The position numbers and the translations under genes are program-made. From Geitlerinema sp. PCC 7407 (GTDB lineage Bacteria > Cyanobacteriota > Cyanobacteriia > PCC-7407), in contig NC_019703.1 in assembly GCF_000317045.1 (NCBI RefSeq), forward strand, positions 2,220,501 to 2,284,500: 64,000 bases of DNA, written 5' to 3'. The notes below the pieces were generated by a model that was given only the letters and a program-made list of their open reading frames with translations, had not been told where the DNA came from and did not search any database. This document shows, one piece after another, positions 46,478-64,000 of this stretch (the first letter of the stretch is position 1; each line of letters begins with the position of its first letter).

Positions 46478-46765
46478 ATGATTCAGTACAAAGATTTTGC
46501 GCCTCGGATTACTGAACGGGGACCCTTTGGCGGAGCTTCCGATTATGAATCTTTCTCTGATGTTGTGAGTGCTGTTAATCAGTGGATCGGAAGTGCAGCG
46601 ATACAGGTGATCAATGTTGAAACTGTTGTTTTACCCGATCGCATCGAAGGCACAAGTGATGGTGTCTACGGATTGACGACCAGTAATGCTTTCTACCCAG
46701 TGATGATCAGCCAGGGGCTTGCAATCAACTACTTTCAATGTGTGCGTGTGTGGTACAGAGAATAG
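46478..46765 (+). CDS. Small cyanobacterial protein with INVETVVLP motif
   Basis: The product has 95 residues from ATG 46478 (GTG 46466 possible). It contains FAPRITERGPFGG, VVSAVNQWI, VINVETVVLPDRIEGTSDG and a closing CVRVWYRE. Small proteins with a VN-x-W helix, VINVETVVLP and F-x-RVWYR ending recur in cyanobacteria, with no assigned function. A decayed copy of this gene lies 5.2 kb downstream (51790-51970), there directly ahead of ridA. This shows that the gene was originally paired with a RidA gene. Confidence 0.7.
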   Translation: MIQYKDFAPRITERGPFGGASDYESFSDVVSAVNQWIGSAAIQVINVETVVLPDRIEGTSDGVYGLTTSNAFYPVMISQGLAINYFQCVRVWYRE

Positions 46766-46793
46766 GCTTTGCTGGAGAAGAAACAACGATTTA

Positions 46794-51789: not shown

Positions 51790-51970
51790 AGGCTGTGAGT
51801 GCACCAATCAGTGGATCGAAAGTATATCGACACAGGTAATCAATGTTGAGACTGTTGTTTTACCCGACCGGATTGAAGGCACAAGTGACGATGTCTACGA
51901 AGTGACGGTCAGTAATGATTTCTATGCGGCGATGATCAGTTAGGGCATTACAATCAATTGCTTTTAATGT
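51790..51970 (+). pseudogene. Decayed copy of the INVETVVLP-type small gene
   Basis: This stretch aligns with the second half of the gene at 46478-46765: GTGAGTGC...AATCAGTGGATCG (about 51797-51820), CAGGTAATCAATGTTGAGACTGTTGTTTTACCCGA (51834-51868), then GTGTACGTGTTTGGTACAGAG near the end. Frameshifts and a TAG (about 51941-51943) remove the frame, and the first half of the gene is missing. It directly precedes ridA. Confidence 0.8.
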
Positions 51971-52023
51971 GTACGTGTTTGGTACAGAGAACAAGCTTCA
52001 CCAGGGAAGAAATAAGGAAGACC

Positions 52024-56190: not shown

Positions 56191-57576
56191 GTGGGTACTG
56201 TGGATTTTTATCGATCAAACTTAGGTTTTAAAGGTCTTTTGAGTTTGGTTATTAATTCAATGCCTACTTTTTCAAACCTGCTCCTCATTCAGCCTGATCT
56301 GTTGAATATCAAGCCTATGATGAGTGAAGATGCATCCGTCGAAGAGCTCGATGGAGAACTTCGAAAAATCGCCGAGGACGTGTTGAACGCGGCGCAATAT
56401 TCCATCACGGCGATCGCCGCAGAACCGGATGCAAAAGTTCGGCCAGATACCCTAGAAGCTGATTTTCAAACCGCATTTAAATCTGTGCAGCCAAGCCTGA
56501 GAACCAGCGCCACCGCCCAAGCGGTAGAGCTGGTCAAAGCGCCGGTAGCCGTGCGAAAAACCGTCTTTGGTCGCTATGGAGAGCTGCCCGCTCAGGCCGT
56601 GGTGACCGATGGATTTGCGCGCCTCAAAGATGGACTGCCACCGCTTCAAGTAGATCGGAAGCTGTTGGGTTTTCCAGAAGCGCAAATCTCGGTTCCGGTC
56701 TCTCAAATCACCGCCACACCAACGGGATTGCTGATTCCTCAAGCAAATTTGCCGGGTAATTTTGCAGACTTTGAGAGCGCCACTCAAGACTCCATGGCAG
56801 AAGCAGGCAAAGCAGGGGTGCTCGATCGCGATCGCTTTGCCCAAGTGTGGGGTGAAACCTACGAAGGCGATATTTTTGGGCGCATGGATGGCCCCAATGA
56901 AGACTTCGAAGGTCAAGCGACCACCGATAAATTGAGTCTTTGGATTCGCAAGATCAAATGTGAAGATGAAACCAATCCCGAGTGGTGGGGAGATGATGAA
57001 ATCGCCCTAGCCGGAGTCTCCACCGATGAAGATGGAGACGTCAAACCCATTGGTGAGCGGTTTATCGGCGGCGGTTTCAAAGATGGTCGTGAAAAAGACT
57101 ATCCCAACTGGCAGTATCACTTCTTTAGCATGCGCGAAGGCAAGCACTGGCCCAAAAAATACGGGATCACGCTGATCTTGGCAGAGAAAGATAATGGGGG
57201 TCTCTCTAGCTTCCTGAACAATCTCTGGCAACGCGTTCGAGACCAGGTAAAAGCAGCCATTGAAGCAGCCCTGACTGCGGCTGGCGGCGTGGTTGGGGGG
57301 ATCTTTGGTTCCTCAGAACTGGGAGCGGCGATCGGCAAAGCGATCGGCAAAGCAGTTGCCTGGATCGTGGACAAGCTGGTCGGCTGGCTGATCAAACTCT
57401 TCCAGGACGATATCTTCAAGCCCTTCACCGCTTGGTGCACGGTGCCTTCCTTTGGGGCGCGCTGGAACTATCCCAACGGGACTTGGGGCAACCCCTGGTC
57501 ACCCATTAACACGGTGCGTTTCCACGGCTTTGGCGGACGCTATCGCGTGGACTATCAGTGGTATATCTCTGCGTAG
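56191..57576 (+). CDS. Unknown protein with glycine-rich hydrophobic segment, protease-linked
   Basis: The product has 461 residues from GTG 56191; ATGs at 56260 or 56317 would give 438 or 419, and none has a clear ribosome site. I do not recognise the family. The N-terminal half is acidic and helical with repeated AKVRPDTLEADFQTAFK-type amphipathic stretches. The middle has aromatic-rich strands (DKLSLWIRKIKC, YPNWQYHFFSMREGKHWPKKYGITLILAEK). Then comes a helical, glycine-zipper segment (ALTAAGGVVGGIFGSSELGA, AIGKAIGKAVAWIVDKLVGW) like those of pore-forming or colicin-type proteins, and a strand-rich WNYPNGTWGNPW end. Two subtilase genes follow in the same direction, so it may be their substrate. 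Confidence 0.55.
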   Translation: MGTVDFYRSNLGFKGLLSLVINSMPTFSNLLLIQPDLLNIKPMMSEDASVEELDGELRKIAEDVLNAAQYSITAIAAEPDAKVRPDTLEADFQTAFKSVQPSLRTSATAQAVELVKAPVAVRKTVFGRYGELPAQAVVTDGFARLKDGLPPLQVDRKLLGFPEAQISVPVSQITATPTGLLIPQANLPGNFADFESATQDSMAEAGKAGVLDRDRFAQVWGETYEGDIFGRMDGPNEDFEGQATTDKLSLWIRKIKCEDETNPEWWGDDEIALAGVSTDEDGDVKPIGERFIGGGFKDGREKDYPNWQYHFFSMREGKHWPKKYGITLILAEKDNGGLSSFLNNLWQRVRDQVKAAIEAALTAAGGVVGGIFGSSELGAAIGKAIGKAVAWIVDKLVGWLIKLFQDDIFKPFTAWCTVPSFGARWNYPNGTWGNPWSPINTVRFHGFGGRYRVDYQWYISA

Positions 57577-57613
57577 TGATATCTAGGCCGATCGCTTCTG
57601 CGATCTAGAGATA

Positions 57614-57644
57614 GTGGGGGAGCACACGCCTTTGTGCTCCCCAC
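57614..57644 (+). terminator. Strong hairpin between unknown gene and first subtilase
   Basis: GTGGGGGAGCACA (57614-57626) pairs with TGTGCTCCCCAC (57633-57644) with one bulged G and a 6-base loop. It lies 38 bp past the stop of the unknown gene. No T-run follows, so it may slow or partly end transcription, or set the ratio of unknown protein to proteases. It also occupies a false GTG start of the protease frame. Confidence 0.65.
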
Positions 57645-57682
57645 CCCATTTCCCCAAACTCTCTCTTCAAAGGTCTTGTCCT

Positions 57683-58471
57683 GTGAATATTTCCAGCTTT
57701 TCATCGATCGCGCATGAATTCGTTGATCCGGCCTGCCACCTTGCCGCTTTGTTGCAGTCTTTTGGGAGGCAGAGAGAAGACTCTCGGCTGGTCCGCTGGT
57801 CTCCCCGGTTGGCGGGAGGAACGGGGGCAGGGGTGCGGGTGGCGCTGCTCGATAGCGGCCTGGATCGAGAACATCCTGGGTTGAGGAATGCTCGGGTGAT
57901 CGCCGAGGATTTCACGGGTCAGGGCAGCTTGGCCGATGGGACAGGCCACGGGAGCCAAATGGCGGCGCTGCTGGTGGGCCAAGGGTTAGAGGCGTCTGGC
58001 GGATTGGCTCCGGAGGCAACGCTGCTGTTTGGTAAGGTTCTCCGGGCTTCGCTTTCTGCCAAAACTGAAGACTACATTGCCCGAGGGATTCGCTGGGCGG
58101 TGCAGCAGCGGGCCGATATTTTGGTGTTGCCTTTGGGGCGATCGCGCGCTTCTCGGGTGATCTATCAGGCGCTTCAGCGGGCGATCGCCGCAGGAGTCCA
58201 GATCTTTGCGGCGGCAGGCAATGGGGGACCTCAGCGGATCCTGTTTCCGGCCAGCCTTCCGGGGGTCGTCGCGGTGACCGGTGCCAATCTGGCAGGAGAG
58301 ATCTTGCCGGAGTGCGCTGCTGTGGAGACGGTGGACGCGATCGCCCTGGGAGATGTCCCCGCCCCCGGGGGAATGGGGCCTGGGGCTCGGCTTGTGGGCT
58401 CTTCGCCTGCGACGGTCCTGGCAGCAGCGATCGCAGCCTTAGAGCTCTCTCTTTACCGGTCTTCTCCATGA
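57683..58471 (+). CDS. Subtilase-type (S8) serine peptidase, compact
   Basis: The product has 262 residues from GTG 57683, past the intergenic hairpin; the frame opening at 57614 lies in that hairpin. The core fold is complete: D57 in VALLDSGLDREHPG, H89 in GTGHGSQMAALL, oxyanion N180 in AAAGNGGPQ and S241 in VGSSPATVLAAA. The serine motif is GSSPAT rather than GTSMAT, an unusual change in the invariant triplet that could alter activity. No signal peptide is seen, so the enzyme may act in the cytoplasm. The stop overlaps the ATG of the next subtilase (ATGA), showing translational coupling. Confidence 0.85.
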   Translation: MNISSFSSIAHEFVDPACHLAALLQSFGRQREDSRLVRWSPRLAGGTGAGVRVALLDSGLDREHPGLRNARVIAEDFTGQGSLADGTGHGSQMAALLVGQGLEASGGLAPEATLLFGKVLRASLSAKTEDYIARGIRWAVQQRADILVLPLGRSRASRVIYQALQRAIAAGVQIFAAAGNGGPQRILFPASLPGVVAVTGANLAGEILPECAAVETVDAIALGDVPAPGGMGPGARLVGSSPATVLAAAIAALELSLYRSSP

Positions 58472-60594
58472 ACCTATCTTTGGTAACCCTAGAAACGAGG
58501 CTGAGCTTTGTGCTGGGCCTTGAGCCTGCGATCGCCCAGCGCATCATCGCGCGACAGGCCACGCTGACGGATCTGCTGATGGCCCAGACCCAGAGCCATC
58601 TGGCCCTAGAGGTGATTTTTCAGATCTTTCTGCAACCCGAAAAAGTTTTAGACCAACGCTTAAACCCTAATTCTTTAACAGAGGCCCAGTTGCGTCAGTT
58701 GCCGGGGCTCGGGGACAGCGCAAGACAAGCCATACAGGAAAGTCGCCCCTTTTTCTCGCTGACAGAAGTGGAAATCGCGACGCAGCTTCCCCAGGTGCTG
58801 CTCCAGGAGCTGCTGGAGCTGCCGACCTATCAGTGGCTCGACAAGCCCCAGGGCACTCGCTCCACAGTGCGCCCCGTGTCTGGGGTCTACACGGCGATCG
58901 CCGATTCGGATGAGTTTGAGGCGGTTCCCGAAGCGGCCCAGGCGGGCTTTGCAACGACGACTATCCACCAGGATCGCCAGCGCATTCTGGTTTTGGAGGC
59001 GAGCGACTTCGAGGCCCCAGCGGTCGATCCCCACCGGCTCAAGCAGTCCCTGGCGGGGCGGATTTGTCCGGCGCTGCGAGACGCCCAGGGCATGATCCGC
59101 TATCTGGTGCCCCTCTCGGTCGATCTGTGGTTTCGGCCAGAGACACCGCGCGATCGCGTGGAGGCGATCCTGGCGGCTCTCCAGTTGCGCCTCGTGGAGC
59201 CGGTCACGGAGACCTTGGCAGCCATGGGATATTATCGGGCGGTCATTCCCGGCTGTCCCGTCGATACCGATCCCCTCAGAGCGGTGCTGGAGGTGGTGCA
59301 GCTGGCCGGACAGTATGAAGAAATTCGCTTTGCGGAGCCGGAGCAAATCGGCCTGAATGACTTTGGGCCGGATACGACGCATCTGGCGGGGAGGGAGAGT
59401 GACTTTGAGGCGGTGGGACGCTACTGGAATCATGACGTCATTCAGCTAGGGGCGGCCCATCAGCTCACCCAGGGATCAGACAAAGTGACGATTTTTGTGA
59501 TTGACAGCGGGGTAGATACAGAGCATCCGGCGATCGCCCCAGTACTGCGCCCCGACTGGCAAAGGGTCGATCTCAACTTCACCTTGAGCGATCCGGAAAG
59601 TGCCCTCTCTCCCCAAGAAATCAGCGTGAGTCACGGCACCCAGGTGACGAGTGTGGCGATCGCCCAAGGCCCCGAAAATGGAGAGATCGTGCGGGGAATT
59701 GCGCCGCTGTGTCGGGTCTTGCCGATCAAGATTTCTGGCTCTATGGGGTATGGTCTGCGGGCGGCGGCGATTCGACAGGCGATCGCCCTTTTGCAACCGG
59801 GAGAGAGAGGAATTCTCAATCTCAGTTGGCGGACCAATGGAGAACATATTGGCATCCGGGAAGCGTTGCAGGAAGCCGATCGCCGGGGTTTTGCCACCGT
59901 CACATCGGCGGGCAACTACAGCGCTGGAGAACGCCAGATCGCCAATGATCTCCACTATCCCTCGGCCCACGGCTATCGCTATCCCTATCTGCGATCGCTC
60001 TGTGTGGTGGCGGCCTCTACGGTGGAAAATCGGCGCGCTAGCTATTCCTACTTTGGCTCAGAAAGTATCACTCTGGCAGCGCCGGGGGGTGAGGCCGGAT
60101 CGGCGGGTTCGGCGATCTATGTCGCGAGTCCTCGGGGCCAGCATGCCTACGTTTGGGGGACGTCTTTTGCGGCTCCCCATGTGGCGGGTCTACTGGGGCT
60201 AATGTTTGCTCGCAATCCCCAGCTTTCTGCCCCGGAGGCGATCGCCTGTCTCCAGCGCACAGCCCAGTCTCTGCCTGCCTCCGAGCCCGCCCCCCTGGGC
60301 CACGGCATCGTGAATGCCTACGCGGCGGTGATGGCGGTGCCGCTGCCTCAGGAGGTCTCGGAAAATCCGCCAGCAGAGCCACCCCAGGAGATCCATCACG
60401 CTGGCAAGATCAATCTCAATACGGCCACTGCGGAGGAGCTAGCGAAGCTATCTCTCATGAATGACTGGCGAATCGATCACCTGCTTCGCTATCGCCAGAC
60501 CCAGGGGCCTCTCCAGTCGATCTGGGATCTCCTCTATGCAGGCGCTTTTGATCTATGGACAATCCGACATCTCCAGGATCAGGTCAGTCTATAG
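58468..60594 (+). CDS. Subtilase (S8) with helix-hairpin-helix motifs at both ends
   Basis: The product has 708 residues. An N-terminal helical region contains an HhH-like motif (residues 65-92, LNPNSLTEAQLRQLPGLG). An unrecognised beta-rich part (130-330) precedes the subtilase domain (335-625), which has D346 (VIDSGVDTEHP), H389 (SHGTQ), N483 (SAGNY) and S566 (GTSFAAPHVAG). The C-terminal motif KINLNTATAEELAKL, followed by WDLLYAG, is a ComEA-type HhH (648-700). HhH motifs usually bind DNA or make protein contacts, so this mix is unusual. There is no signal peptide. It overlaps the first subtilase by 4 bp and ends 6 bp before the CRISPR array. Confidence 0.82.
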   Translation: MNLSLVTLETRLSFVLGLEPAIAQRIIARQATLTDLLMAQTQSHLALEVIFQIFLQPEKVLDQRLNPNSLTEAQLRQLPGLGDSARQAIQESRPFFSLTEVEIATQLPQVLLQELLELPTYQWLDKPQGTRSTVRPVSGVYTAIADSDEFEAVPEAAQAGFATTTIHQDRQRILVLEASDFEAPAVDPHRLKQSLAGRICPALRDAQGMIRYLVPLSVDLWFRPETPRDRVEAILAALQLRLVEPVTETLAAMGYYRAVIPGCPVDTDPLRAVLEVVQLAGQYEEIRFAEPEQIGLNDFGPDTTHLAGRESDFEAVGRYWNHDVIQLGAAHQLTQGSDKVTIFVIDSGVDTEHPAIAPVLRPDWQRVDLNFTLSDPESALSPQEISVSHGTQVTSVAIAQGPENGEIVRGIAPLCRVLPIKISGSMGYGLRAAAIRQAIALLQPGERGILNLSWRTNGEHIGIREALQEADRRGFATVTSAGNYSAGERQIANDLHYPSAHGYRYPYLRSLCVVAASTVENRRASYSYFGSESITLAAPGGEAGSAGSAIYVASPRGQHAYVWGTSFAAPHVAGLLGLMFARNPQLSAPEAIACLQRTAQSLPASEPAPLGHGIVNAYAAVMAVPLPQEVSENPPAEPPQEIHHAGKINLNTATAEELAKLSLMNDWRIDHLLRYRQTQGPLQSIWDLLYAGAFDLWTIRHLQDQVSL

Positions 60595-60600
60595 GCTGGC

Positions 60601-62306
60601 GTCTAAAGGGGCCGCATTTTGAGATTGCGGTGAGACTTGAACGTTACGGTCTGGGAGGTATCGCCGCCAGTAGCGCTTCAAAGGGGCCGCATCTTGAGAA
60701 TGCGGTGAGACCGCTGGCGTTCCAGTCAAAGTTTTTGAGTTGCTCGCTTCAAAGGGGCCGCATCTTGAGAGTGCGGTGAGAGACGCAAAAGTGGGCGAGG
60801 TGATCGTTGCCGAGGGGCAGCTTCAAAGGGGCCGCATTTTGAGATTGCGGTGAGACTCCAAGCATTTTTTGCTGTCCGAAAGCACTCTCTCGGCTTCAAA
60901 GGGGCCGCATTTTGAGATTGCGGTGAGACGGTAGCTTTGAAAGATGCCCTTGATCTGATCCTTGCTTCAAAGGGGCCGCATTTTGAGATTGCGGTGAGAC
61001 CCTAGGGTGTAGGTGGCATAGTCCACCGTGTTGATGCTTCAAAGGGGCCGCATTTTGAGATTGCGGTGAGACGGTTGGGGCTCCGCAGCTGCGGCTTCGG
61101 GTGCCACGCTTCAAAGGGGCCGCATCTTGAAAATGAGGTGAGACATCGGAGCTGCTAATGAAGACGGCGAAGGTGCCATGGCTTCAAAGGGGCCGCATCT
61201 TGAGATTGCGGTGAGACAGCATTTTAGGGTGCCATTAGCCAGTTTGGCCGCTGCTTCAAAGGGGCCGCATCTTGAGATTGCGGTGAGACAATGATCCGCT
61301 CTTCGGGGATCTCCCGATTTGGGATGCTTCAAAGGGGCCGCATCTTGAGATTGCGGTGAGACAGCTTGAATATGGGATCTGGAGCAAATGGCTAGAAGCT
61401 TCAAAGGGGCCGCATCTTGAGAATGCGGTGAGACCTCATAAGAGGGGAGGAAGGAGTTGAGGACCGTGCTTCAAAGGGGCCGCATCTTGAGAATGCGGTG
61501 AGACTGCTGGCTGCTCGGCTCGACGCACCAAGGTTGGTGCCCCTCTTCAAAGGGGCCGCATCTTGAGAATGCGGTGAGACGCAATCAATCGCGTCAGCGG
61601 GCGATCGATTTGATTTCTTCAAAGGGGCCGCATCTTGAGAATGCGGTGAGACCCTTCCAGTTGCCGTCCAAAAGTCGTGCACGCTCTCTTCAAAGGGGCC
61701 GCATCTTGAGAATGCGGTGAGACAAGCCGTCGGGCGGCCTGAGCCGTCGTCCTCGAATCTTCAAAGGGGCCGCATCTTGAGAATGCGGTGAGACCTCAGC
61801 GCTCAGCTTCACGGCACCACCCACTCATCTCTTCAAAGGGGCCGCATCTTGAGAATGCGGTGAGACGCCCAAGTCCGATAGACCCCAATCTATATCAAGT
61901 GTCTTCAAAGGGGCCGCATCTTGAGAATGCAGTGAGACGTGGTCGAAATCGGCTCCCTGCGCCGTCTCCAGGTCTTCAAAGGGGCCGCATCTTGAGAATG
62001 CGGTGAGACAACGGTTGCTGTGTTCCCGCTCGCAAAGCGGTCTGCTCCTCTTCAAAGGGGCCGCATCTTGAGAATGCGGTGAGACCGCATAGCCGATGTC
62101 GTTGTCATCGTCGTACTGGTCTTCAAAGGGGCCGCATCTTGAGAATGCGGTGAGACGTGCTGATTTTAGGCCTAATTTTAGGCAAGTCTGTTCTTCAAAG
62201 GGGCCGCATCTTGAGAATGCGGTGAGACCTACCAGGGTTCTTCCCTCTACCTGCACTGATGGCTATCCGTCTTCAAAGGGGCCGCATCTTGAGAATGCGG
62301 TGAGAC
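60601..62306 (-). CRISPR. CRISPR array, 24 repeats, type I-G-associated
   Basis: Twenty-four repeats of 36 bases begin at 60601, 60676, 60747, 60821, 60894, 60965, 61037, 61109, 61182, 61254, 61327, 61399, 61469, 61545, 61617, 61688, 61759, 61831, 61903, 61974, 62050, 62121, 62193 and 62271, with 23 unique spacers of 34-42 bases. On the plus strand the repeat runs CTTCAAAGGGGCCGCAT, TTGAGA, ATGCGGTGAGAC, with a CCGCAT/ATGCGG stem. The base before it is G in repeats 2-13 and T in repeats 14-24, so 37 bases may be the true unit. The leftmost repeat is worn (GTCTAAAGG start). Minus-strand transcription is inferred because only 6 bp separate the left end from a gene. The adjacent gene is csb2. 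Confidence 0.97.
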
Positions 62307-62535: not shown

Positions 62536-64000
62536 CTACATCCCCCGATCCGCGCCCCCATCGACCGGCAAAAAGACCCCCAGCCCAAAGTGAGCCCCAT
62601 AGCCCAGAGCGATCGGCCCCTGGCGAGGCTCCGCAAACTCCAGCTCTAGCCAGTATCCGCACTCCGACGATCGACTCCCCTCACCCGAGTAGCGCCGCCG
62701 CCGAAACTGCTTCCAATGCAAATGCTTGGAAGGATCGTCGCTGCAAGCCTTCTTCTCATCATCAGAGAGACAGCGTACCTTGACCAGCTCCTTCCCTTGG
62801 GCATTTACATAACGCAGCCAATCCTCTTCCCCATCCTCCTTAGACTGCACTTTCTCGCAGCCCTCCAGCGACTCATCTTGGTGCAGCGACTTCAGGAGAT
62901 TCTTGAGCAGATAGAGCGCCTGGTCCTCCGGTCCCTCCCGCTGAAACGGCGTTTCGCCAATGCACTTGGGATTGTTGCGGCGATCGAACTTTGGATGACG
63001 CGGCAGCACCATCGGCGTCAGCGATCGCCAGCGACGCCCCCACCCCAGCAGCGGCGAAACCCCCGGCCCATTCGACCGGTACTCCTCCGCCCGCCCCAGC
63101 GACACCAGCACCATCTGAAAGCGATCTTGCTCCTTTTGGTTGAAATACCTCAGACGCCCCAAAGTCGCGATCGCCCGCTCCGAGAATCCCCCCGCCGCAT
63201 AGACCAGCACATGATCGATCTTGCCCTGGCGATTTGGCTCCGGCAGATACCACGCATGCTGATGTCCCTTCGCTTCCTGCTCAACCTCCTCCCCTTCCTC
63301 CGTCGTCACCCACTGGCGACCGCTAAAAACCGCCTCCGCCGATTGAGGCTGGTCACCATTGCTGAGACTCGTCAACGTCTTGTGAAAGCGATCGCCCAGG
63401 GTCAGCGCCTCCGTCAGATTGGGCAGCACACTCGACCACAGCGCAAAGCGAGCCACCGTAGGAGCAAGCGATCGCGATCGCTGAGCAGACGGGGCCAGTC
63501 GGTCCGGCTCCGCCACCGGCTCCAGACCATAGGTCACCCACCGCGCCCCCGGAATCCCGCTCCAGCCCTGGGCATAGAGATCACTCGTATCCAGCTCCAG
63601 CACCTCCAGCAGATCCGCCGGGATCTTCCACTTCGCCTTGCCCCGCTTTGGCTTCGGCATCAGCGCCAGCGCCCCCCGAAATCCCTCCAGCCCCTCCGTC
63701 GTCAGCGGAGCCAGCACCCTCACCGGCTCTCCCTGACCAGAGGACTCTGGCTCGGCCAGGGGCCGCATCTGGAATGAGACCTGCTCAGCCTCCAGCTCCT
63801 GCGACGACAGAAGCTGAATCTCGACCCAAGACTCTGCCCGCCCCAGATAGCTAATCTGGCCGCACAGACGGCGCAGCAGATTCTTTTCTTCCTCTGTGGC
63901 CTCTACCCCCGGCCACATCACCCACAGCTTGGCCTCCGACGACAGCGCTCCCCCCGGCAGCGCATAAAACGTATCCAGCACTTTAGTCGTGGTCGATTTT
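62536..64000 (-). CDS. csb2: Csb2, Cas5-Cas6 fusion of type I-G (I-U) CRISPR-Cas, 5' end outside window
   Basis: The frame runs off the right edge: six codons (KSTTTK) precede the first internal GTG at 63981, giving 487 visible residues. The opening K-VLDTFYAL is the conserved Csb2 strand after the missing N-terminus. HQHAWYLPEPNRQGKIDHVLVYAAGGF near residues 245-270 and the terminal glycine loop GPIALGYGAHFGLGVF are hallmarks of the GSU0054 family, in which Cas5 and the crRNA-processing Cas6 are one chain. It should process pre-crRNA from the adjacent array and cap the crRNA 5' handle in Cascade. Other cas genes (csb1/cas7, cas8g, cas3, cas4-cas1, cas2) are expected to the right. Confidence 0.93.
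   Translation of the reverse strand, partial: KSTTTKVLDTFYALPGGALSSEAKLWVMWPGVEATEEEKNLLRRLCGQISYLGRAESWVEIQLLSSQELEAEQVSFQMRPLAEPESSGQGEPVRVLAPLTTEGLEGFRGALALMPKPKRGKAKWKIPADLLEVLELDTSDLYAQGWSGIPGARWVTYGLEPVAEPDRLAPSAQRSRSLAPTVARFALWSSVLPNLTEALTLGDRFHKTLTSLSNGDQPQSAEAVFSGRQWVTTEEGEEVEQEAKGHQHAWYLPEPNRQGKIDHVLVYAAGGFSERAIATLGRLRYFNQKEQDRFQMVLVSLGRAEEYRSNGPGVSPLLGWGRRWRSLTPMVLPRHPKFDRRNNPKCIGETPFQREGPEDQALYLLKNLLKSLHQDESLEGCEKVQSKEDGEEDWLRYVNAQGKELVKVRCLSDDEKKACSDDPSKHLHWKQFRRRRYSGEGSRSSECGYWLELEFAEPRQGPIALGYGAHFGLGVFLPVDGGADRGM

What the first reader, a model, noticed from the sequence alone, without database searches (positions are those of the whole stretch)
56191..60594. Unknown protein plus two coupled subtilases, one with helix-hairpin-helix motifs, next to a CRISPR locus
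The three genes form one co-oriented unit. The two proteases overlap by ATGA, both keep a full D-H-S triad, and neither has a signal peptide. The first has an altered GSS serine motif. The second joins a subtilase to HhH motifs at both ends, a combination that suggests nucleic-acid or partner-triggered proteolysis. The leading 461-residue protein has a glycine-zipper hydrophobic segment like pore-forming proteins. A nucleic-acid-sensing protease releasing a membrane-active effector would be a coherent defence or cell-death module, but this is inference; a secreted-peptide pathway is another option.
Basis: partly seen in the sequence, partly recalled or inferred. Interest (0 to 1): 0.8.

Follow-up and report, generated by a model that had tools for sequence, protein, structure and literature searches.

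The report
Protease-linked C2-like membrane protein module
A cyanobacterium carries a three-gene set, also found in distantly related bacteria, in which subtilisin-type proteases sit beside a protein with a predicted membrane-binding C2-like domain and share its short Phe-Glu motif, which suggests (but does not prove) that the protease switches the membrane protein on.

Summary
Three co-oriented cyanobacterial genes encode an unannotated protein (56260 or 56191 to 57576), a small subtilase S8a (57614-58471) and a subtilase S8b with helix-hairpin-helix at both ends (58468-60594). The trio is not a local accident: full-length relatives of the unknown protein occur in 7 genomes of 3 phyla, each beside a subtilase, and S8b's N-terminus marks the same genomes in three surveys (281, 182 and 201 genomes). 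The unknown protein's C-terminal half is predicted to be a C2-like beta-sandwich with the glycine-rich segment as a helical hairpin in a membrane-facing loop (weak model, consistent matches). An acidic-Phe-Glu motif lies 15-17 residues before the C2-like domain and at S8b's pro/mature junction in every full-length system; distant relatives without S8b lack it at that place. Distant relatives sit with other subtilases, caspases or STAND receptors. Best explanation: S8b processes itself and the C2-like protein, releasing a membrane-active domain for defence or cell death (about 0.5). DNA-triggering is weakly supported, since the HhH hairpin glycines are not conserved. The CRISPR neighbour is peculiar to this genome. 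New variant of a known kind; function untested.

The parts
56260..57576 (+). C2-like protein ('unk'): N-terminal helical bundle, disordered linker, C2-like domain with helical-hairpin insertion (ORF open from GTG 56191; ATG 56260 fits the homologues)
   Evidence: no Pfam, NCBIfam or PADLOC match
56353..56628 (+). N-terminal helical bundle of unk (conserved also in distant relatives)
   Evidence: AF2 model, pLDDT mostly 55-79; alignment A1
56767..56775 (+). Asp-Phe-Glu motif 1 in the disordered linker of unk
56902..56910 (+). Asp-Phe-Glu motif 2, 17 residues before the C2-like domain's first-strand Cys motif (15-17 in all 7 homologues)
56923..57573 (+). C2-like domain of unk, with conserved acidic residues in loops 1 and 3
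   Evidence: Foldseek, VIA-align 2 Z 9.5-8.1, invariant columns
57199..57399 (+). glycine-rich helical hairpin inserted in loop 3 of the C2-like domain
   Evidence: AF2 model, hydropathy
57614..58471 (+). S8a: small subtilase without propeptide (probable start 57682), D-H-S triad with GSS serine motif
58468..60594 (+). S8b: HhH + beta region + propeptide-like domain + subtilase + HhH
58651..58842 (+). N-terminal HhH region of S8b
   Evidence: hhalign against ComEA-type HhH, probability 95%; weak hits of this segment to HhH of PLD-family proteins
58912..58920 (+). Glu-Phe-Glu motif in the pro-region of S8b
59005..59013 (+). Asp-Phe-Glu motif in the pro-region of S8b
59026..59352 (+). propeptide-like domain of S8b
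   Evidence: model aligns with unprocessed pro-subtilisin E over 439 columns; also the part similar to the Methylobacter 301-aa protein
59401..59409 (+). Asp-Phe-Glu motif at the pro/mature junction of S8b; Phe313 and Glu314 invariant in all five aligned S8b
59479..60300 (+). subtilase catalytic domain of S8b
   Evidence: Pfam PF00082, E 1.6e-35
60400..60591 (+). C-terminal HhH of S8b
   Evidence: Pfam HHH_3, E 8e-12; hhalign probability 96%
60600..62306 (.). CRISPR array (24 repeat units); its far end abuts the S8b stop codon. Neighbour only, not part of the conserved unit
62536..63999 (-). type I-G Csb2 (runs off the window). Neighbour only

Best explanation
A conserved protease-plus-effector module. 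The first gene encodes a latent membrane-active protein: a helical N-terminal domain tied by a disordered linker to a C2-like, probably Ca2+-dependent membrane-binding domain whose membrane-facing third loop carries a glycine-rich helical hairpin. S8b is made as a zymogen with a propeptide-like domain, and its HhH regions probably dock a partner or sensor. On a trigger, S8b cuts at acidic-Phe-Glu sites, first at its own pro/mature junction and then in the effector's linker, freeing the C2-hairpin domain to insert into the inner membrane and damage or remodel it. S8a (in Methylobacter, a protease-less relative of S8b's pro-region) is a helper or regulator. The likeliest purpose is defence or self-killing. 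Shown: conserved gene unit, intact catalytic residues, HhH, co-occurrence, shared motif at fixed positions. Predicted: C2-like fold, hairpin, propeptide. Inferred: cleavage at the motif, membrane action, defence role.
For: Full-length relatives: window, G280, Myxacorys, two Methylobacter, Palleronia and an acidobacterium, all adjacent to a subtilase. In both Methylobacter genomes the neighbouring S8b is the only S8 of the genome. Strong matches (E below 1e-40) to S8b's N-terminus occur in the same genomes as full-length unk: 3 of 281 cyanobacteria, 1 of 182 and 1 of 201. C2-like fold: the top 39 rows of VIA-align 2 are C2-domain structures, Z 9.5-8.1, over model residues 227-443, and Foldseek agrees in kind. 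[DE]FE occurs 5 times in 1,146 aa of unk+S8b against 0.3 expected in shuffles (0 of 2000 reach it) and 1 in 14,639 aa of other window ORFs; the last site lies 15-17 residues before the C2-like domain in 7 of 7, and one lies 33-40 residues before the catalytic Asp in 6 of 6 S8b. It is absent at that place in six distant relatives that lack S8b. Distant relatives pair with S8a-like subtilases (G017, G280 second copy, G1221), with caspases on both sides (G059: caspase-nSTAND1-WD40 and caspase-DUF7379) or with STAND/EAD4 genes.
Against: The AF2 model of unk has mean pLDDT 48 and Foldseek E-values no better than 0.09; a sequence profile of the domain finds no C2 protein in the PDB. The hairpin is only moderately hydrophobic. 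The Phe at S8b's junction could be the structural Phe seen near the mature N-terminus of ordinary subtilases, and a shared short motif may be for docking, not cleavage; in Methylobacter the acidic residue before Phe at the junction is Asn, and the strict [DE]FE count there is not significant. One distant relative without a known S8b (G228) has a DFE about 37 residues before its C2-like domain. Known defence genes are not consistently near the full trio: the Methylobacter loci lie among metabolic genes, and NACHT genes are so common in these cyanobacteria (14 in G033) that one near the Myxacorys trio means little. No experiment exists.
Confidence: 0.5

Rival explanations
1. Maturation or export pathway: the C2-like protein is a secreted or surface protein (or a scaffold) that the subtilases trim, as PatA/PatG, QhpE or mycosins do in their pathways. 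Membrane binding then serves envelope function, predation or adhesion, not self-killing.
For: S8a's best NCBIfam relatives are mycosin, QhpE and PatA, all below cut-off. Distant relatives fuse the C2-like domain to LGFP, tectonin-like or other repeats that often bind carbohydrate.
Against: No signal peptide is evident on any of the three proteins; no secretion apparatus, radical-SAM, QHNDH or precursor-peptide gene was noticed next to the trio in the loci examined, though neighbours were not exhaustively annotated; relatives sit with caspase-STAND genes, which are expected to act inside the cell.
Confidence: 0.22
2. Ca2+-dependent membrane repair or remodelling: the C2-hairpin protein patches or bends the plasma or thylakoid membrane under stress, and the proteases control its turnover.
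For: Conserved acidic residues in the two C2 loops that bind Ca2+; C2 domains in eukaryotes (dysferlin, perforin) act at damaged or target membranes (established knowledge; these are among the structural matches).
Against: Very patchy distribution (3 of 281 cyanobacterial genomes) suits an accessory conflict gene better than a repair function; present in non-photosynthetic bacteria; linked to caspases and STANDs in relatives.
Confidence: 0.13
3. Nucleic-acid-triggered protease: the HhH regions of S8b bind invading DNA or RNA and turn the protease on.
For: HhH regions at both ends are real and resemble ComEA-type DNA-binding HhH; a CRISPR array is adjacent in this genome.
Against: The hairpin Gly-x-Gly is not kept in either region (N-terminal: PGLG, PGLN, PHLR, PRID, PQIA; C-terminal: SLMN, PGMN, PSIG, PGIN, PGMG). 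The CRISPR neighbour is not conserved.
Confidence: 0.12

Closest known systems
Bacterial gasdermins (bGSDM) with neighbouring proteases
   Same: Latent membrane-active protein encoded beside a protease that is thought to release it; patchy distribution; proteases can be caspases (from memory of the published work; a review, PMC10989679, was found but not read)
   Different: No sequence match to gasdermin in Pfam; predicted fold is C2-like with a hairpin insertion; the protease is a subtilase with HhH, and the freed part would be the C-terminal half
Peptidase-centred conflict systems of Kaur et al. 2020 (NucA-trypsin 'System 3', EACC1-caspase 'System 4'; PMC7159879)
   Same: Proposed proteolytic cascade or autoproteolysis releasing an effector; subtilase domains occur in some System 3 polypeptides; membrane-linked component with a glycine patch in System 4
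   Different: No NucA, trypsin, EACC1 or EAD domain found in the trio; 'C2-like' and 'helix-hairpin-helix' do not occur in that paper; the trio is defined by the C2-like protein and S8b
QhpE, PatA/PatG and mycosin subtilases
   Same: S8a is most similar to these among curated families
   Different: All scores are well below the curated cut-offs; partner genes of those pathways were not seen
IetAS and PADLOC 'subtilase' models
   Same: Subtilase in a defence context; weak matches of both proteases
   Different: No IetA ATPase partner in the trio; the match covers only the common subtilase core
C2 domains (cPLA2, dysferlin, perforin C2, Delta/Jagged N-terminal C2)
   Same: Predicted 8-stranded sandwich; acidic residues in loops 1 and 3
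   Different: About 70-residue helical hairpin in loop 3; no detectable sequence similarity

Membership tests
C2 domain | eight-stranded C2 beta-sandwich | tested here: inconclusive
   Low-confidence AF2 model (pLDDT 48), but the best structural matches are C2 domains, Z up to 9.5, rmsd 3.0 over 115 residues; Foldseek E 0.09
C2 domain | acidic residues in loops 1 and 3, as in Ca2+-binding C2 domains | tested here: met
   D21, E84, D86 of A4 invariant in 12 divergent members, D158/D159 nearly so; Ca2+ binding itself not testable here
C2 domain | sequence similarity to known C2 families | tested here: not met
   No Pfam C2 hit at E<1; profile search of PDB sequences finds none
Subtilase S8 (both proteases) | Asp-His-Ser triad and oxyanion Asn in the S8 fold | tested here: met
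   among homologues, S8a of G1221 has Asp->Glu and the acidobacterial S8a of L012 lacks the oxyanion Asn
Helix-hairpin-helix (ComEA type) | HhH profile match | tested here: met
   C-terminal: Pfam HHH_3; N-terminal and C-terminal hhalign 95% and 96%
Helix-hairpin-helix (ComEA type) | Gly-h-Gly hairpin used for DNA backbone contact | tested here: not met
   Not conserved across six S8b
Bacterial gasdermin systems | gasdermin-family effector | tested here: not met
   No Pfam or PADLOC match of unk
Bacterial gasdermin systems | protease cleavage activates a membrane-disrupting protein | not testable with these tools
   needs biochemistry; the shared Phe-Glu motif is only suggestive
QhpE / PatA / mycosin | score above curated NCBIfam cut-off | tested here: not met
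   S8a: 72.7 of 165, 44.3 of 421, 95.7 of 279 bits
IetAS | IetS subtilase with IetA ATPase | tested here: not met
   IetS match weak, E 1e-5 and 4e-4; no ATPase gene in the unit

The most novel reading that the evidence does not exclude
A gasdermin-like logic built from unrelated parts: a bacterial C2-domain effector with a hairpin in its Ca2+ loop, released by a self-activating HhH subtilase through a common acidic-Phe-Glu site, with related C2-like proteins plugged into caspase-NLR systems elsewhere. It would be a new class of protease-activated membrane-damaging effector.
Probability: 0.33. Interest if true: 0.85.

Novelty: new variant of a known kind. Interest (0 to 1): 0.62.

Why it matters
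If true, bacteria evolved a second, structurally unrelated way to switch on a membrane-active protein by proteolysis, using a C2-like domain, a fold best known from eukaryotes, and linked in relatives to the caspase and STAND genes thought to drive bacterial cell death. The shared Phe-Glu motif gives a concrete, cheap test of the protease-substrate link. The family has no Pfam or NCBIfam model, so its members now go unannotated.

Tried and rejected
Pfam, NCBIfam, PHROGs and PADLOC give nothing informative for the unknown protein. Viral contigs gave no relative, alone or with an alignment, so the module is not phage cargo as far as seen; plasmid records hold one Streptomyces relative and one S8b-like protease in Nonomuraea in which no HhH, Phe-Glu motif or C2-like partner was found. 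A profile search of the domain against PDB sequences found only chance helical matches. The gapped 10-row alignment was a poor query for whole genomes (2 hits) compared with the single sequence (7 hits). The hit in G251 lies in a glycosyltransferase frame and is taken as spurious; the weak one in G629 was not resolved. CRISPR adjacency was considered as part of the system and rejected: no CRISPR array in the four trio loci or two wider loci checked. A NACHT-HEAT gene near the Myxacorys trio was not taken as evidence because such genes are common there. Literature searches found no paper on such a C2-like/subtilase pair; papers outside the held library were not searched.
Full report
WHERE IT IS. 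The window lies in a 4.68-Mb single-contig genome that is the only member of its order in the held set. Its class contains Myxacorys californica (G033 and L010 are the same contig by length and content), so it is a cyanobacterium.

OBSERVATION. The three genes are as described: an unannotated protein ('unk'), S8a and S8b, the last two overlapping by ATGA at 58468. Homologues begin at MPxx, so unk probably starts at 56260 and has 438 residues. Both proteases have intact catalytic residues. S8b has a confirmed C-terminal HHH_3 domain and an N-terminal HhH region at residues 62-125 (hhalign 95% against a ComEA-type HhH). Upstream is a DUF2254 gene; downstream are a CRISPR array and a type I-G Csb2.

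THE UNIT IS CONSERVED. Full-length relatives of unk (about 38-70% identity) occur in another cyanobacterium (G280), Myxacorys, two Methylobacter (Gammaproteobacteria), Palleronia (Alphaproteobacteria) and an acidobacterium: with the window, seven genomes of three phyla. In six of the seven the next genes include S8b; in the acidobacterium S8a follows and the contig then ends. S8a is present in four. In Methylobacter its place is taken by a 301-residue protein that resembles only the pro-region of S8b (BLASTP E 6e-5; its HhH part weakly by hhalign). In Palleronia S8b follows unk directly. Both Methylobacter genomes have a single S8 protease, the one beside unk. In separate surveys, strong matches to S8b's N-terminus (E below 1e-40; weak matches to the HhH segment alone are set aside) were found in exactly the genomes with full-length unk: 3 of 281 cyanobacteria, 1 of 182 in the order of Palleronia, 1 of 201 in the order of Methylobacter. 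The occurrence is rare, patchy, spread over phyla and linked.

WHAT UNK IS. An AlphaFold2 model from five sequences is poor overall (pLDDT 48) but shows a helical N-terminal bundle, a disordered middle, and a C-terminal beta-sandwich with a long helical hairpin between strands 5 and 6. Structure comparison gives mostly C2 domains: Foldseek E 0.09 for perforin C2, and VIA-align 2 Z 9.5-8.1 for Delta/Jagged, cPLA2, dysferlin, PI3K and others, over residues 227-443. The conserved acidic residues (D21, E84, D86 and D158/159 in A4) lie in the loops before strand 2 and after strand 5, where C2 domains of the cPLA2 topology bind Ca2+ (established knowledge), and the hairpin grows out of the third loop, one that dips into membranes in ordinary C2 domains. 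This is inference on a weak model, and a sequence profile finds no C2 relative.

A SHARED SHORT MOTIF. Acidic-Phe-Glu (mostly Asp/Glu-Phe-Glu, followed by a small or acidic residue) occurs five times in unk plus S8b, against about 0.3 expected and once in 14,639 residues of other window ORFs. The last copy in unk is 15-17 residues before the C2-like domain in all seven homologues; one copy in S8b is 33-40 residues before the catalytic Asp, at the pro/mature junction, in all six, with Phe313 and Glu314 invariant. Distant relatives of unk without S8b do not have it at that place; one of them (G228) has a DFE about 37 residues before the domain. The simplest reading is a common recognition or cleavage site. 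Cautions: ordinary subtilases also have a Phe near the mature N-terminus; the residue before Phe at the junction is Asn in Methylobacter, where the strict count is not significant; and motif conservation in related proteins is not independent evidence.

THE WIDER FAMILY. More distant proteins with the same N- and C-terminal domains occur beside S8a-like subtilases (G017, a second copy in G280, and the acidobacterium G1221, whose S8a has Asp->Glu), between two caspase genes, one a caspase-nSTAND1-WD40 protein and the other carrying DUF7379 (G059), or among STAND-like genes (Streptomyces plasmid; an EAD4-NB-ARC gene beside the G280 copy); one proteobacterial copy stands alone and one lies on a short contig. 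Several carry LGFP, tectonin-like or other repeats. Kaur et al. 2020 (PMC7159879) describe caspase, EAD and STAND genes of this kind as conflict systems in which proteolysis releases effectors.

MECHANISM. The best-supported account is a latent membrane-active C2-like protein released by a self-activating subtilase. The trigger is unknown. The HhH regions have lost the glycine hairpin needed for DNA contact in most members, so partner binding is likelier than nucleic-acid sensing. The CRISPR neighbour was not seen in related loci. Rival accounts, secretion/maturation and membrane repair, remain open because no experiment has been done.

VERDICT. Observation confirmed; interpretation partly supported and sharpened by the C2-like prediction, the co-inheritance and the shared motif. 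New variant of a known kind.

Noticed in passing
L010:13908-16652 (Myxacorys, minus strand): NACHT-HEAT protein about 1 kb from the trio with 11 repeats of 93 nt in its HEAT part, most of them 92-99% identical, as expected of a fast-changing receptor.
   Followed up: partly
L025:2930-13536 (G059): Caspase-nSTAND1-WD40 gene, a C2-like/LGFP protein and a caspase-DUF7379 gene in a row: a candidate caspase version of the same module.
   Followed up: partly
L009:9442-10347 and L011:9493-10398 (Methylobacter): A 301-residue protein resembling only the HhH and pro-region of S8b replaces S8a; possibly an inhibitor or adaptor.
   Followed up: partly
L044:9651-10505 (acidobacterium G1221): S8a-like subtilase with catalytic Asp replaced by Glu, beside a C2-like protein; may be a pseudo-protease.
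   Followed up: no
window 60594-60600: The far end of the CRISPR array starts about 6 nt after the S8b stop codon, with a degenerate first repeat.
   Followed up: no
window 46577-46789 and 51806-52018: A 213-nt stretch repeated at 81% identity at two places about 5 kb apart.
   Followed up: no
L041:7785-10331 (Nonomuraea): Unannotated subtilase with a related pro-region and C-terminal repeats, without recognisable HhH or Phe-Glu motif.
   Followed up: no
window 57614-60594: Both subtilases match PHROG 3677, a phage protease family (E 6e-24 and 1e-30).
   Followed up: no
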